64,000 bases of DNA. Source: a bacterium (lineage in GTDB: Bacteria > Actinomycetota > Thermoleophilia > Solirubrobacterales > 70-9). The DNA is taken from the NCBI GenBank assembly GCA_023251935.1, contig JAHEXV010000001.1:1-64000 (forward strand), read 5' to 3'. Under the pieces are notes generated by a model. The model ran no database searches. It saw only the letters and a list, made by a program, of their open reading frames with translations, and was not told the DNA's origin. How positions within the stretch are numbered: the first letter of the stretch is position 1; the number at the start of each line of letters is the position of its first letter. Shown here in pieces: positions 5,945 through 46,438 of this stretch. The position numbers and the translations under genes were made by a program.

Positions 5945-7267
5945 TCAGTCCAGCGGGCGGTGGGTCCCACCGCGCGCATACTCCTCCGCGCGCAGGGGCC
6001 GAGGATGGCCGATCGATCCGACCTCGGCCACGTCGCGCCGGAACGGAAGCCCGACGGTCCAATCGGCGACCGCGCGGATCTTTCGCGCCAGGCCCGGGAT
6101 CCGGCTCATGTGGTAGGTGCGCGCCATCCACCAGGCCACGAAGCCGCGGAACTTCTGCGGTCCGAGACGGCCGACCGCCTTGTGGCGGCCGAGGTTGACG
6201 AACGCGACCCGAGTCCGGTACCGAAACGGCTTCGCGGTGCCGATCCCGAGCTCGGCGGCGATGTTGCGCGCCGCCAGCGGCCCCTGGCGGACCGCGTGCT
6301 GGGCGGTGGGCGGGCTGGGCGCCTTCCCCCCGGTTCGGGGGTCGGGCACCGCGGCACAGTCGCCGACCGCCCAGACGCCGTCCATCCCCTCCACCCGGAG
6401 GTGGCTGTCGACCAGCACCCGGCCCCGCCCGTCGAGCGGAAGGCCGAGCGACGAGAGGCTGGGATGCGGGATCACCCCGGTGGTCCAGACGATCGTGCGG
6501 GTGGGGATCCACTCGCCGGTCGAGAGGCGCACGCCGTCCGCCCCCGCCTCCTCGAGCCGGGTGCCGAGGCGGATGTCGATCCCCCGCGCCCGCAGCTCCG
6601 TCGCCGCGTAGTCGGCGAGGTCGGGATCGATCTCGGGCAGCACCCGGTCGGTCGCCTCGACCAGGATCCAGTGCATCCCGTGCAGGCGCGCCCGCGGGTA
6701 TCGCTCGATCGCGTCGACGGCGAAGTCCTGAAGCTCGGCCAGCGCTTCGAGGCCGGCGTATCCGCCACCGACGAATACGTAGGTCAGCAGCTCCTCGCGT
6801 CGGGCGGGATGCTCGCTGGCGTTCGCGGCCTCGAGCGTCTCGACGATGTGGTTCCGCAGCCAGATCGCGTCCGCGAGGCTCTTGAAGCCGACCGCGTGCT
6901 CCGCCAGTCCCGGCACCGGCAGCAGCCGCGACACCGACCCGAGCGCCAGCAGGAGCTGGTCGTAGCGCAGCTCCTCGACCTCGTCCTCGTGGCTGGTCAG
7001 CTGCACGGTGCGGGCCGCCGGGTCGTGCCCGGTGACGGCGCCCAGGCGCAGGTAGGTGCGGTGCAGGATGTCGCGCAGCGGGGTGACGACGTGCCGCGGC
7101 TCGAGCGTCCCCGCCGCCGCCTCGGGGAGAAACGGCGTGTAGAGCAGGAAGTTGACGTCGTTGACGAGCACCAGCCGGGCCGCCTGCCGCGGGATCAGCC
7201 GCTCGAGCTTCCGGGCCGCCGACGCCCCGGCAAACCCGCCACCGACGATCACCACGTTCCAGGCCAC
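5945..7267 (-). CDS. ndh: type II NADH dehydrogenase (NDH-2), FAD-dependent
   Basis: 440 aa single-subunit NADH:quinone oxidoreductase, non-proton-pumping and peripheral to the membrane. The N-terminal FAD site is VGGGFAGASAARKLE (residues 8-22). The second dinucleotide site, for NADH, is YVFVGGGYAGLEALAEL near residue 165. WAVGDCAAVPDP near 300 is the second FAD-contact motif. The C-terminal part has the amphipathic KFRGFVAWWMARTYHM typical of NDH-2 membrane contact. The start is a GTG at 7267. A perfect palindrome and a -10 box lie directly upstream, so expression is probably repressed by a dimeric regulator. Confidence 0.92.
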   Translation of the reverse strand: MAWNVVIVGGGFAGASAARKLERLIPRQAARLVLVNDVNFLLYTPFLPEAAAGTLEPRHVVTPLRDILHRTYLRLGAVTGHDPAARTVQLTSHEDEVEELRYDQLLLALGSVSRLLPVPGLAEHAVGFKSLADAIWLRNHIVETLEAANASEHPARREELLTYVFVGGGYAGLEALAELQDFAVDAIERYPRARLHGMHWILVEATDRVLPEIDPDLADYAATELRARGIDIRLGTRLEEAGADGVRLSTGEWIPTRTIVWTTGVIPHPSLSSLGLPLDGRGRVLVDSHLRVEGMDGVWAVGDCAAVPDPRTGGKAPSPPTAQHAVRQGPLAARNIAAELGIGTAKPFRYRTRVAFVNLGRHKAVGRLGPQKFRGFVAWWMARTYHMSRIPGLARKIRAVADWTVGLPFRRDVAEVGSIGHPRPLRAEEYARGGTHRPLD

Positions 7268-7304
7268 GGGCCCAGTATTACACCTTGTAACAGTTTGTTA
7301 CAAG
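7268..7304 (-). promoter_or_regulatory. ndh promoter with 9+3+9 palindromic operator
   Basis: CTTGTAACA (7284-7292), spacer GTT, TGTTACAAG (7296-7304) form a perfect inverted repeat. On the minus strand TAATAC (7280-7275) lies 7 nt before the GTG. With a 17-bp spacer the -35 would be TTGTAA inside the palindrome, so a bound dimer would block RNA polymerase. The mRNA would be leaderless. The sequence is not the usual Rex site (TTGTGAA-N4-TTCACAA); a TetR- or GntR-like factor is possible. Confidence 0.7.
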
Positions 7305-7315
7305 TGCGTCCCGTG

Positions 7316-8764
7316 CTAAGCGGCGCCGAGCTTCTCTCGGATCAGCCGCGTCACCTCGCCACCGTCCGCACGGCCCTTGGTCTCGCGCATCACCGCGCCG
7401 ACGATCGGGCCGATCGCCTTCGGGTTGCCCGACCTGACCTTCTCGGCCGCCGCCGGCTCGGCCTCGATCGCCCGCTCGACGATCGCCTCGAGCTCGCTGG
7501 AGTCCGAGACCGCCGCCAGTTGACGGCTCTCGACGACCTCCTCCGGGTCGCCGATCGACGAGCCCGGGTCGACCAGTGCGTCGAGCACCTCACGGCCGCT
7601 GGCGTGGGTGATCCGCTTCTCGACCACCATCCGCGCCACCGCGACCAGGTGCGCGGGGGCGACCTCCCGTCCGTCGGCGCCGAAGTGGCGGCGGGCCGCG
7701 GCGAGGTCGCCGGTCACCCAGTTGGCGATCACGCTCGGCTCCACTCCGTCGCCGGCCTCCAGCGCCCCCTCGAAGTAGGTCCCGAGCTCGGCGTCGAAGG
7801 CGAGCTGGCGGGCGGTGACCTCGGGAACGCCGAACTCGGCCTCGTAGCGCCGTCGCCGTTGATCGGGGAGCTCGGGCAGGGCCTCGCGGGCCTCGCGCAG
7901 CATCTGCTCGGTCGGCGCCAGCGGCACCAGGTCGGGCTCGGGGAGGTAGCGGTAGTCGTGCGCGTACTCCTTCGAGCGAAGCGGCGTCAGCGATCCAGTC
8001 CGGGGGTCGAAGTGGAAGGTCTCCTGGGCCACCTCGCCCCCCGCCTCGAGTACCGAGGCCTGACGCTCGAGCTCGGCGGCGATGCCCCGTTCGAGGAAGC
8101 GGAAGCTGTTCATGTTCTTGAGCTCGGTCTTCGTCCCGAGCTCCTCGGCGCCCGGCGGCCGGATCGAGACGTTGGCGTCGCAGCGCAGGCTCCCCTCCTC
8201 CATGTTCACGTCGGAGACGCCGAGCTGCTCGACCGTGGTCCGCAGCAGCTGCGCCCACTGCCGGGCCTCGCCCGGGTCGTGCAGGTCGGGCTCGGTGACG
8301 ATCTCCACCAGCGGGGTGCCGCCGCGATTGAAGTCGACCAGCGAGGCGGCCGAGCCGTGGATGCGGCCGGACTCGCCGAGGTGGACCATCTTCGCGGCGT
8401 CCTCCTCGAGGTGGACGCGGTGGATGCGGACCCCCGCCAGGCTCCCGTTGGCGGCCAGCGGGATGTCGTACTGGCTGATCTGGTAGCCCTTCGGGCTGTC
8501 GGGGTAGAAGTAGTTCTTGCGGTGGAAGATCGACCGCGGGGCGACCTCACAGCCGAGCGCCAGGGCGATCTGAAGCGCGTACCGGACCGCCCGCTCGTTG
8601 ACGACCGGCAGGGTTCCCGGGTGGGCGAGACAGACCGGACAGGTGTGGACGTTCGGCTGGTCGCCGAACGAGAGGGCGCAGCCGCAGAACATCTTCGTCT
8701 GAGTGCTCAGCTGGACGTGGATCTCGAGCCCGATCACCGCCTCGTATCCGCTCGGAACGCTCAT
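7316..8764 (-). CDS. gatB: aspartyl/glutamyl-tRNA amidotransferase subunit B
   Basis: 482 aa. GatB carries the kinase-like activity that activates Glu on Glu-tRNA(Gln) (or Asp on Asp-tRNA(Asn)). Signatures are YEAVIGLEIHVQLSTQTKMF at the N terminus, CPVCLAHPGTLPVVN, FHRKNYFYPDSPKGYQISQY, VDFNRGGTPLVEIVTEPD and NMEEGSLRCDANVSIRP. The C-terminal YqeY/tRNA-binding domain ends in REKLGAA. Its ATG at 8764 overlaps the gatA stop by ATGA, showing translational coupling in the gatCAB operon. Length is normal for the family. Confidence 0.96.
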   Translation of the reverse strand: MSVPSGYEAVIGLEIHVQLSTQTKMFCGCALSFGDQPNVHTCPVCLAHPGTLPVVNERAVRYALQIALALGCEVAPRSIFHRKNYFYPDSPKGYQISQYDIPLAANGSLAGVRIHRVHLEEDAAKMVHLGESGRIHGSAASLVDFNRGGTPLVEIVTEPDLHDPGEARQWAQLLRTTVEQLGVSDVNMEEGSLRCDANVSIRPPGAEELGTKTELKNMNSFRFLERGIAAELERQASVLEAGGEVAQETFHFDPRTGSLTPLRSKEYAHDYRYLPEPDLVPLAPTEQMLREAREALPELPDQRRRRYEAEFGVPEVTARQLAFDAELGTYFEGALEAGDGVEPSVIANWVTGDLAAARRHFGADGREVAPAHLVAVARMVVEKRITHASGREVLDALVDPGSSIGDPEEVVESRQLAAVSDSSELEAIVERAIEAEPAAAEKVRSGNPKAIGPIVGAVMRETKGRADGGEVTRLIREKLGAA

Positions 8765-23433: not shown

Positions 23434-23832
23434 TTAGATGTGGTACATGCCCGCGCCTGCCTCCTCCGACTCGCGGCGGGCGATGTCGGCGATCGTCGTC
23501 GAGCGAAATACATCGCGCAGCGACTCGACTCCCTCTGCCCAGATCCCGCCCGCCTCCTTGCCCTCCTGCCCCAGCCTGCCGTCGAGCGACTGCACCACCT
23601 CGAGCACGTTGATCTCGGCGGCGGGGCGCGCCAGCGTGTAGCCGCCCTTGACGCCGCGATGGCTCTGGAGGAGCCCGTCGCGGCGCAGGGTCGTGAACAG
23701 CTGCTCCAGGAACTGCACCGGCATCCGCCGGCGCTCGGCAATCTGGGCGATCGGGACCGGGCGCTCGCCGGAGCGGGCCAGCTCGGCCATCGCGACCACC
23801 GCGTAGCGGGACTTCGAGGTGACGGAGATCAT
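23434..23832 (-). CDS. Rrf2-family transcriptional regulator without Fe-S cysteines
   Basis: 132 aa. The winged helix is MISVTSKSRYAVVAMAELAR, VPIAQIAERRRMPVQFLEQL and RRDGLLQSHRGVKGGYTLAR, classic Rrf2. The C-terminal half lacks every Cys, so it cannot bind the Fe-S cluster of IscR or NsrR. Cys-free members such as CymR regulate cysteine metabolism by binding CysK, and cysK-cysE lie 5 kb away; a CymR-like role is therefore a testable guess. TACAAC lies 8 nt before the ATG. Confidence 0.88.
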   Translation of the reverse strand: MISVTSKSRYAVVAMAELARSGERPVPIAQIAERRRMPVQFLEQLFTTLRRDGLLQSHRGVKGGYTLARPAAEINVLEVVQSLDGRLGQEGKEAGGIWAEGVESLRDVFRSTTIADIARRESEEAGAGMYHI

Positions 23833-45090: not shown

Positions 45091-46161
45091 CTACTGGGCG
45101 CATTCCCAGGCGCTGGCCCCGGAATCCGCCCAGATCTGGGCGGCAACCTGGCTCTGCTGCTGCGGCGAGGCGTCCTGGGGCGCCCCGCTGCCTCCGTACA
45201 GGCGCCAGGTCGAGGGCAGGATCTGGTAGGCCCCACCGGCCCCCGAGGAGGGGTTGACCGCGTTGAAGTTGCCGCCCGACTCGCACATCACGATCGCCTG
45301 CGGGATCGCCCATTGGCCGACCCAACTGGAGACCGTCTGCTGCGCCTGGGCGGCGGCGGCCTGCTGGCTTTGCTGCGCCTGGATCTGCTGAAGCTGCGTG
45401 ACCTGCTGCTCCCACCCCGCGACTTGTGAGCGCAGGCTCGAGGCCGCGGCCGCCTCCTGCTGGCGGGCCTGGTCGAGCTGGGCCGCCTGGGCCTCGGCGT
45501 TGGCCCGGACCGAGGCGATCTGGTCGCGGGCGGTGGCGATGCGCTGATTGAACGCGATCTGCTCGGCCCTCGCCTGCCGGACCTGGGTGAGCTGGGCCGC
45601 GACCACGTTGCGCAGCTGGCGCACGCGGGCGGCGAGCGACGCGTCCGCGTCCTCGATTCGGCCGACCAGCTCCGCCCGGTTGGCGAGATCGTCGAAGCCC
45701 CTGGCGCTGAGCAGCAGCTCGGTCAGGTCGGGCGCGTCGCCCTGGTAGATCGAGACCAACCGTTGCGACAGGGCCGTCAGCGCGCGGCGCAAGCTGGCCC
45801 GAGCCCTGGCCAGCCGCGCCTGGGTCTGCGCGACTCGGGCCTCGAGCTCGGCCTGGCGCTGCTCGCCCTGCGCGAGCACGCCCGAGAGCTGGGCCTCTCG
45901 TTGGGCGGCCGCCGCGGCCTGCTGGCGCGCCGCCGCGACCTGGCCCGCCTTGGCGTCGATGTCCGCCGCCAGGCTCTGTGCCTGCGACTGGGCGGAGGAG
46001 ATCTGCGAGTTGAGCTCGGTGACGCTCTGCGCACCGGCGCTGGCGGCCGCGAGGGCCAGGACCGCGCCCGCCGCGAGAGCTGCGAGCAGCATGACGACGC
46101 CCCCCCGAAACCTGGCCGGGCGGCGACCACTGGGCGAACGCGTGTAGCTCTTCGACTCCAT
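45091..46161 (-). CDS. secreted coiled-coil protein with Rpf-like muralytic domain
   Basis: 356 aa if started at ATG 46161; ATG 46092 (333 aa, beginning MLLAALAAGAVLALAAASAG) gives a cleaner signal peptide. The mature protein has a long Gln/Ala-rich coiled coil (about 45-270; SQISSAQSQAQSLAADIDAK), as in RipA/CwlO N termini. The C-terminal 75 residues (VGQWAIPQAIVMCESGGNFN, SSGAGGAYQILPSTWRLYGG, AAQIWADSGASAWECAQ) are a resuscitation-promoting-factor/transglycosylase fold with the catalytic Glu in CESGG. It should cleave peptidoglycan glycan strands. A c-di-AMP riboswitch precedes it. Confidence 0.88.
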   Translation of the reverse strand: MESKSYTRSPSGRRPARFRGGVVMLLAALAAGAVLALAAASAGAQSVTELNSQISSAQSQAQSLAADIDAKAGQVAAARQQAAAAAQREAQLSGVLAQGEQRQAELEARVAQTQARLARARASLRRALTALSQRLVSIYQGDAPDLTELLLSARGFDDLANRAELVGRIEDADASLAARVRQLRNVVAAQLTQVRQARAEQIAFNQRIATARDQIASVRANAEAQAAQLDQARQQEAAAASSLRSQVAGWEQQVTQLQQIQAQQSQQAAAAQAQQTVSSWVGQWAIPQAIVMCESGGNFNAVNPSSGAGGAYQILPSTWRLYGGSGAPQDASPQQQSQVAAQIWADSGASAWECAQ

Positions 46162-46314
46162 CCTTCGTATGCCTACGGGGTTAGCTGTCGGGCTCGCGCC
46201 GAAGGACTGGCGCTACGCGGCGGTGGCCGCGATTCGCCCCCGGGGCATCTCCGCGTCAGCGGTGCCTGGCCCCAGCGGTTCCCCCGCTCCCTCGGGATGG
46301 GCCCAAAGGATTCG
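46160..46314 (-). promoter_or_regulatory. c-di-AMP riboswitch (ydaO/yuaA class)
   Basis: On the minus strand the hallmark blocks of the ydaO/yuaA aptamer appear in order: GAGGGAGCGGGGGAACC (46293-46277), GGGGCGAATCGC (46240-46229) and CAGCTAACCCCGTAGGC (46187-46171), the last ending in ATACGAAGG. ATCCTT (46311-46306) can pair with AAGGAT (46165-46160) as a closing helix. In actinobacteria this riboswitch class precedes Rpf and NlpC/P60 cell-wall hydrolase genes and acts as an OFF switch on ligand binding. The closing helix would cover the AUG at 46161. Confidence 0.9.
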
Positions 46315-46438
46315 GCGGTGAAAGGCGAGCGGCATCCTAGCGAATCGTTAGCGAGTTATGAATCCAGGGCCCGCCGGCGGGCCCTTGCAGGAGGTCCTGC
46401 AGGCACGCCGAGGCGGCCTGCGCGGGGGCGCGCCCGGT

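What the first reader, a model, noticed from the sequence alone, without database searches (positions are those of the whole stretch)
7268..7304. Perfect 9+3+9 palindrome overlapping the ndh promoter
The palindrome overlaps the predicted -35 and lies next to TAATAC, with a probable leaderless start at the GTG. The site is not a standard Rex box, so an unknown regulator probably senses redox or quinone state and controls NDH-2.
Basis: partly seen in the sequence, partly recalled or inferred. Interest (0 to 1): 0.5.

Follow-up and report, generated by a model that had tools for sequence, protein, structure and literature searches.

The report
Variant Rex operator controlling NADH dehydrogenases
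The palindrome in front of this bacterium's NADH dehydrogenase gene is very probably the docking site of Rex, a repressor that reads the cell's NADH balance; both the site, one base longer than normal, and the local Rex, which lacks its usual NADH-switch residues, are unusual variants.

Summary
Confirmed: a perfect 9+3+9 palindrome (CTTGTAACA-GTT-TGTTACAAG, 7284-7304) overlaps the ndh promoter, and nothing else in the genome comes within 3 mismatches. It is a real operator. In Solirubrobacterales relatives both arms are conserved, the 3-bp centre is free, and the same palindrome also precedes nuoA (complex I): in 32 of 35 genomes of the window's family, with ndh sites in the remaining three. 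One genus changed both arms symmetrically. The regulator is very probably Rex, not an unknown protein. In two other families of the class the same 19-bp site lies just upstream of rex itself (7 of 8 genome-wide hits in one family). Rex is encoded in the genome with its DNA-contacting residues intact, and Streptomyces Rex represses nuo and ndh from the same promoter position. Two things are unusual. The operator is 19 bp (8-3-8), not the 18-bp Rex box, which is not enriched in this order. This Rex belongs to a Thermoleophilia-wide subfamily (60 of 60) whose NADH-switch Tyr and Asp are Ser and Ser/Asn; canonical Rex in sister families keeps them (7 of 7). Best reading: a variant Rex operator that represses both NADH dehydrogenases by covering the promoter. 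What this Rex senses, and its binding, are unproven.

The parts
7284..7304 (.). Operator: perfect 9+3+9 palindrome CTTGTAACA-GTT-TGTTACAAG; conserved 19-bp core TTGTAACA-N3-TGTTACAA at 7285-7303
   Evidence: Sequence; unique in genome; conserved at 25 distinct ndh promoters, free 3-bp centre
7298..7303 (-). Probable -35 element TTGTAA, inside the palindrome
   Evidence: 17 bp upstream of TAATAC; inferred from layout, not mapped
7275..7280 (-). Probable -10 element TAATAC
   Evidence: TAnnnT at the same place, 7 nt before the start codon, in related ndh promoters
7267..7267 (-). Probable transcription start and first base of the GTG start codon (leaderless)
   Evidence: Inferred from the conserved 7-nt distance between -10 and start codon; no 5'-end data
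5945..7267 (-). ndh, type II NADH dehydrogenase (440 aa)
   Evidence: Pfam Pyr_redox_2; best PDB match 4nwz NDH-2-type oxidoreductase, E 1.8e-47
7316..8764 (-). gatB, upstream co-oriented gene ending 48 bp before ndh; the palindrome is not tied to it
   Evidence: NCBIfam GatB; in one relative an ORF separates gatB from the palindrome

Best explanation
The palindrome is the operator of Rex, the NAD(H)-responsive winged-helix repressor, in a lineage-specific form. A dimer of the Thermoleophilia-type Rex encoded elsewhere in this genome (G000:C39) binds the two TTGTRACA half-sites, covers the -35 element and the -35/-10 gap, and blocks RNA polymerase at ndh. The same protein binds a related site at nuoA, so both NADH:quinone oxidoreductases sit under one redox switch, and in sister orders it binds at its own gene. 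Shown by sequence: the operator, its conservation and symmetry, its targets (ndh, nuoA, and rex in other families), the presence of Rex with intact base-contact residues, and the 19-bp geometry. Inferred: physical binding, repression rather than activation, and release when NADH rises. Because the Arg/Tyr/Asp switch residues of classical Rex are replaced, the NADH response may be altered.
For: (1) Order-wide conservation: ndh (25 distinct promoters) and nuoA (34) share arms with a free 3-bp centre; in the 79 order genomes the strict-pattern hits all trace to ndh or nuoA promoters, with the control pattern near zero. (2) Symmetric change TTGTAACG-N3-CGTTACAA in genus g2, p=0.002 against column shuffles (three related genomes, possibly one event). 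(3) A genome-wide scan of other families with the same pattern found 8 hits in 17 f5 genomes, 7 of them just upstream of rex. (4) With spacing left free, 14 of 17 f5/f7 rex promoters pick 7 bp between 6-bp half-sites, i.e. 19 bp; 9 canonical rex promoters show no such site. (5) Rex in 58 of 61 relatives including own; R48, R49, R60 and G61, base contacts in solved Rex-DNA complexes, are kept. (6) Streptomyces avermitilis Rex represses nuoA1-N1 and binds ndh2; the nuoA1 operator lies between -35 and -10 and covers the -35 (PMC5355995). (7) The 18-bp Rex box is near control level in order f1-f4 (39 vs 30) but enriched where canonical Rex exists (136 vs 36).
Against: The spacing is 1 bp longer than any Rex operator found in the papers read, and spacer-length changes strongly impair S. 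aureus Rex binding (PMC2883068). The G contacted at position 7 of the half-site is mostly A at ndh. No 19-bp site was found at rex in the window's own order, nor in f10/f11, although those families carry only this Rex type. Two f3 genomes keep Rex but lack the nuoA site. No binding data exist.
Confidence: 0.8

Rival explanations
1. The operator belongs to another redox regulator, for example an Rrf2-family [Fe-S] protein such as RsrR, which binds 11-3-11 inverted repeats and targets NAD(P)H metabolism in Streptomyces venezuelae.
For: Some sites extend to 11-3-11 (ACTTTGTAACA-N3-TGTTACAAAGT); RsrR class 1 sites are 11-3-11 and one lies inside the nuo operon (PMC5015018); the genome encodes four Rrf2 proteins above cut-off.
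Against: The 19-bp site recurs at rex, not at an rrf2 gene. Rex is the known regulator of exactly these two targets in Streptomyces. The half-site start TTGTRA matches the Rex half-site and its contact residues.
Confidence: 0.12
2. It is an RNA element: a hairpin terminating gatB or acting in an ndh leader.
For: The RNA would fold well (-14.1 kcal/mol, z -4.8).
Against: No T-run, and no terminator-like site found. The probable transcript starts downstream of it. The element stays with ndh when an ORF is inserted after gatB, and occurs at nuoA and rex, away from gatB.
Confidence: 0.03
3. It is only a -35 element with a fortuitous repeat, or overlapping divergent promoters.
For: The left arm serves as a -35-like TTGTAA.
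Against: The distance from palindrome to -10 differs between ndh (4 bp) and nuoA (8-10 bp); the right arm in the spacer is as conserved as the left; symmetric arm change in one genus.
Confidence: 0.02

Closest known systems
Rex operator (ROP) of Streptomyces, Staphylococcus and others: TTGTGAA-N4-TTCACAA
   Same: Outer half-site TTGTRA; position over the -35 and -35/-10 gap; targets nuo, ndh and rex itself
   Different: 19 bp (8-3-8) instead of 18 bp; inner bases CA instead of AA; mostly A rather than G at the fifth half-site base at ndh
Rex repressor family (PF06971 + Rossmann domain; NCBIfam NF003995)
   Same: Winged helix with conserved base-contact residues, GxGxxG NAD(H) domain, C-terminal helix
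   Different: A clade-wide subfamily in which the switch Tyr and Asp are Ser and Ser/Asn-Pro, Arg16 is usually Gln, and Tyr53 is Gly/Ala/Thr
RsrR (Rrf2 family) 11-3-11 operators
   Same: Odd centre of 3 bp; targets in NAD(P)H metabolism
   Different: No linkage of the site to an rrf2 gene here; different protein family

Membership tests
Canonical Rex operator (ROP) | 18-bp TTGTGAA-N4-TTCACAA spacing | tested here: not met
   Site is 8-3-8, 19 bp; same at nuoA and at rex of f5/f7
Canonical Rex operator (ROP) | Half-site with T-T-G and A at the Rex-contacted positions | tested here: met
   TTGT(A/G)A in both arms; contacts per PMC8836258
Canonical Rex operator (ROP) | Lies in promoters of respiratory genes, over the -35 / -10 region | tested here: met
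   ndh and nuoA promoters; compare PMC5355995
Canonical Rex operator (ROP) | Autoregulation of rex through the same site | tested here: met
   Families f5 and f7; not seen in the window's own order
Canonical Rex operator (ROP) | Bound by Rex, relieved by NADH | not testable with these tools
   Needs EMSA or footprinting with NAD+/NADH
Rex protein family (own genome, G000:C39) | Rex sequence family membership | tested here: met
   NCBIfam NF003995 236.5 bits vs cut-off 126; PDB Rex hits to 9.7e-41
Rex protein family (own genome, G000:C39) | DNA base-contact residues R48, K/R49, R60, G61 | tested here: met
   QIRRDLSGFGKFGKRGVGY
Rex protein family (own genome, G000:C39) | NADH switch residues Tyr98/100 and Asp188/191 | tested here: not met
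   Ser in 60/60 and Ser/Asn-Pro in 60/60 of the subfamily; Tyr and Asp in 7/7 canonical Rex of sister families
RsrR-type Rrf2 operator | 11-3-11 repeat | tested here: inconclusive
   Only some sites extend to 11 bp per arm; the RsrR logo letters were not available as text
RsrR-type Rrf2 operator | Site linked to an rrf2 gene | not tested
   Rrf2 loci of the own genome were not scanned for the site one by one; the own-genome scan gives only the ndh site

The most novel reading that the evidence does not exclude
A class-wide Rex subfamily has lost the classical NADH-switch residues and, with a changed dimer geometry, uses an operator one base longer; it may sense something other than, or differently from, the NADH/NAD+ ratio while still governing both NADH dehydrogenases.
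Probability: 0.4. Interest if true: 0.75.

Novelty: new variant of a known kind. Interest (0 to 1): 0.6.

Why it matters
Rex is a textbook NADH sensor whose operator spacing and Tyr/Asp switch were thought characteristic. A natural branch in abundant, mostly uncultured soil and water actinobacteria that changed both, while keeping the same respiratory targets, lets one test how Rex dimer geometry sets operator spacing, and whether redox sensing survives without the classical switch. It also gives a usable motif for annotating respiratory control in Thermoleophilia.

Tried and rejected
Canonical 18-bp Rex box in the order: near control level. 19-bp site at rex in the window's own order: none. 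Terminator/RNA hairpin: rejected. Rfam: no family at the site. Rrf2/RsrR: considered, not favoured. f4 sites TTGTTACTAAATGTTACAA before a sigma factor plus monomeric IDH: not symmetric, left out of the regulon. Phylum-wide search with the extended palindrome: five genomes, three outside the class; the one inspected closely lies near a LysR gene and gave no lead. Literature search for Rex in Thermoleophilia: no relevant paper. Per-position covariation was significant only at +-2; most other positions are invariant.

Full report
THE OBSERVATION. Window 7284-7304 is a perfect 9+3+9 inverted repeat, CTTGTAACA-GTT-TGTTACAAG. Read on the minus strand, ndh's strand, it gives TTGTAA at 7298-7303, 17 bp, TAATAC at 7275-7280, 7 nt, GTG at 7267. 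The 19-bp core is unique within 3 mismatches in the window (expected 0.00) and in the whole 2.49-Mb assembly. ndh is a type II NADH dehydrogenase (Pfam Pyr_redox_2; best solved relative 4nwz). The gene upstream, gatB, ends 48 bp before ndh on the same strand.

CONSERVATION. Thirty-two of 61 related genomes have the palindrome within 2 mismatches, while the control pattern matched in one genome. Most of these lie upstream of ndh, typically 17 bp before the start codon. A second set lies upstream of nuoA, the first gene of the complex I operon. Record titles of ndh relatives name Solirubrobacterales and Thermoleophilaceae MAGs. In the window's family (f1), 32 of the 35 genomes with a nuoA match carry the nuoA site within 3 mismatches of the symmetric pattern; the other three (G004, G009, G022) keep the ndh site. 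Random 261-bp stretches of the window reach 3 mismatches or fewer only where they contain the palindrome itself (6 of 2000). The own nuoA copy is partly degenerate (ATGTAGCAAGTCCGCACAA). A strict symmetric pattern run over 249 genomes of the class gave, within the order, hits that trace to ndh or nuoA promoters, with one control genome.

AN OPERATOR, NOT A PROMOTER BOX OR A HAIRPIN. Both arms are near invariant and the three central bases are free. In genus g2 both arms changed together (TTGTAACG-N3-CGTTACAA; p=0.002 against column shuffles, though three related genomes may share one event). The palindrome-to-minus-10 distance is 4 bp at ndh but 8-10 bp at nuoA, so it is not a fixed core element. 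The RNA could fold, but there is no terminator T-run, and the -10 lies 7 nt before the start codon in related ndh promoters, with or without the palindrome, implying a leaderless transcript starting downstream of it. In G011, ndh has decayed to its first 28 codons, an ORF separates gatB from the site, and the palindrome persists: the element goes with ndh, not gatB.

WHICH REGULATOR. Rex is encoded once in 58 of 61 relatives, including the own genome. The canonical 18-bp Rex box was near control level in these genomes (39 vs 30 hits). Among families elsewhere in the class, the 18-bp box is enriched in f6/f8/f9 (136 vs 36), where canonical Rex exists, and less strikingly in f5/f10/f11 (20 vs 3) (counts summed from the table). 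The 19-bp palindrome, scanned genome-wide, gave one hit in each of 8 of 17 f5 genomes, and 7 of the 8 lie just upstream of the rex reading frame. When the spacing is left free, 14 of 17 f5/f7 rex promoters select 7 bp between 6-bp half-sites, i.e. the 19-bp geometry; canonical rex promoters show nothing comparable. A motif taken from ndh/nuoA in one order thus lands on the rex promoter in others, which is the strongest link between motif and protein.

FIT WITH KNOWN REX BIOLOGY. Streptomyces avermitilis Rex represses nuoA1-N1 and binds the ndh2 promoter; the nuoA1 operator lies between -35 and -10 and includes the -35 region (PMC5355995). Solved Rex-DNA complexes contact T3, T4, G5, G7 and A8 of the half-site through R48, K/R49, R60 and G61 (PMC8836258, PMC8376106). 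The own Rex keeps these residues (QIRRDLSGFGKFGKRGVGY), and the half-site TTGT(A/G)A keeps T3, T4, G5 and A8.

WHAT IS UNUSUAL. (a) Spacing: 19 bp instead of 18; in S. aureus, changing spacer length strongly impairs Rex binding (PMC2883068). (b) The protein: the class carries a distinct Rex subfamily, separated from canonical Rex of sister families by a 100/100 branch; two f8 genomes carry both types. In 60 of 60 members the Tyr of the NADH switch is Ser and the Asp-Leu is Ser/Asn-Pro; in 7 of 7 canonical sequences Tyr and Asp are present. Arg16 of the T. aquaticus switch is Gln in most members (alignment). In T. aquaticus and T. maritima Rex these residues couple NADH binding to the swapped C-terminal helix, which sets the distance between recognition helices (PMC6125430, PMC8836258). 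It is therefore attractive, but only inferred, that the altered C-terminal helix and the longer operator are linked, and that the redox signal is read differently.

MECHANISM. A Rex dimer on 7284-7304 would cover the -35 and the spacer and block RNA polymerase. Loss of binding, classically when NADH rises, would release ndh and nuo to reoxidise NADH. Repression is inferred from position and from Streptomyces; the signal is inferred and may differ here.

LIMITS. No binding or expression data exist. The own order shows no 19-bp site at rex, f10/f11 have this Rex without the site at rex, and some order members lack the nuoA site. The Rrf2/RsrR alternative (11-3-11 sites, PMC5015018; four Rrf2 genes in the genome) is less likely but not excluded. 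Most genomes are incomplete MAGs, so absence of a gene or site is weak evidence.

Noticed in passing
window 46155-46327 (-): c-di-AMP riboswitch (ydaO/yuaA leader), 69 bits against a cut-off of 38.
   Followed up: no
window 23434-23832 (-): Rrf2-family regulator (132 aa) without an obvious three-cysteine cluster motif, divergent from a response-regulator-like gene.
   Followed up: partly
L046:4077-4197: In G011 ndh is decayed (about 28 codons left) but its operator is a near-perfect 27-bp palindrome, a fossil promoter.
   Followed up: yes
L173, L178, L185, L190-L194: In family f7, same-shape palindromes lie near unrelated genes (dcd/peptidase divergent pair, recR and others); the TTGTAACAG(A/T)CTGTTACAA form recurs in several genomes.
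   Followed up: partly
L035-L039: In family f4 a conserved TTGTTACTNAATGTTACAA-like element precedes a sigma-70-type factor followed by monomeric isocitrate dehydrogenase.
   Followed up: partly
L202-L208, L212: In f7 and f11 the nuoA upstream regions share a single half-site (A)CTTTGTRACAC far upstream of the -10, without a clear second arm.
   Followed up: no
L049-L053, L195-L199: nuoA is preceded by a divergent small membrane-protein gene in many relatives, so the operator could regulate both directions.
   Followed up: no
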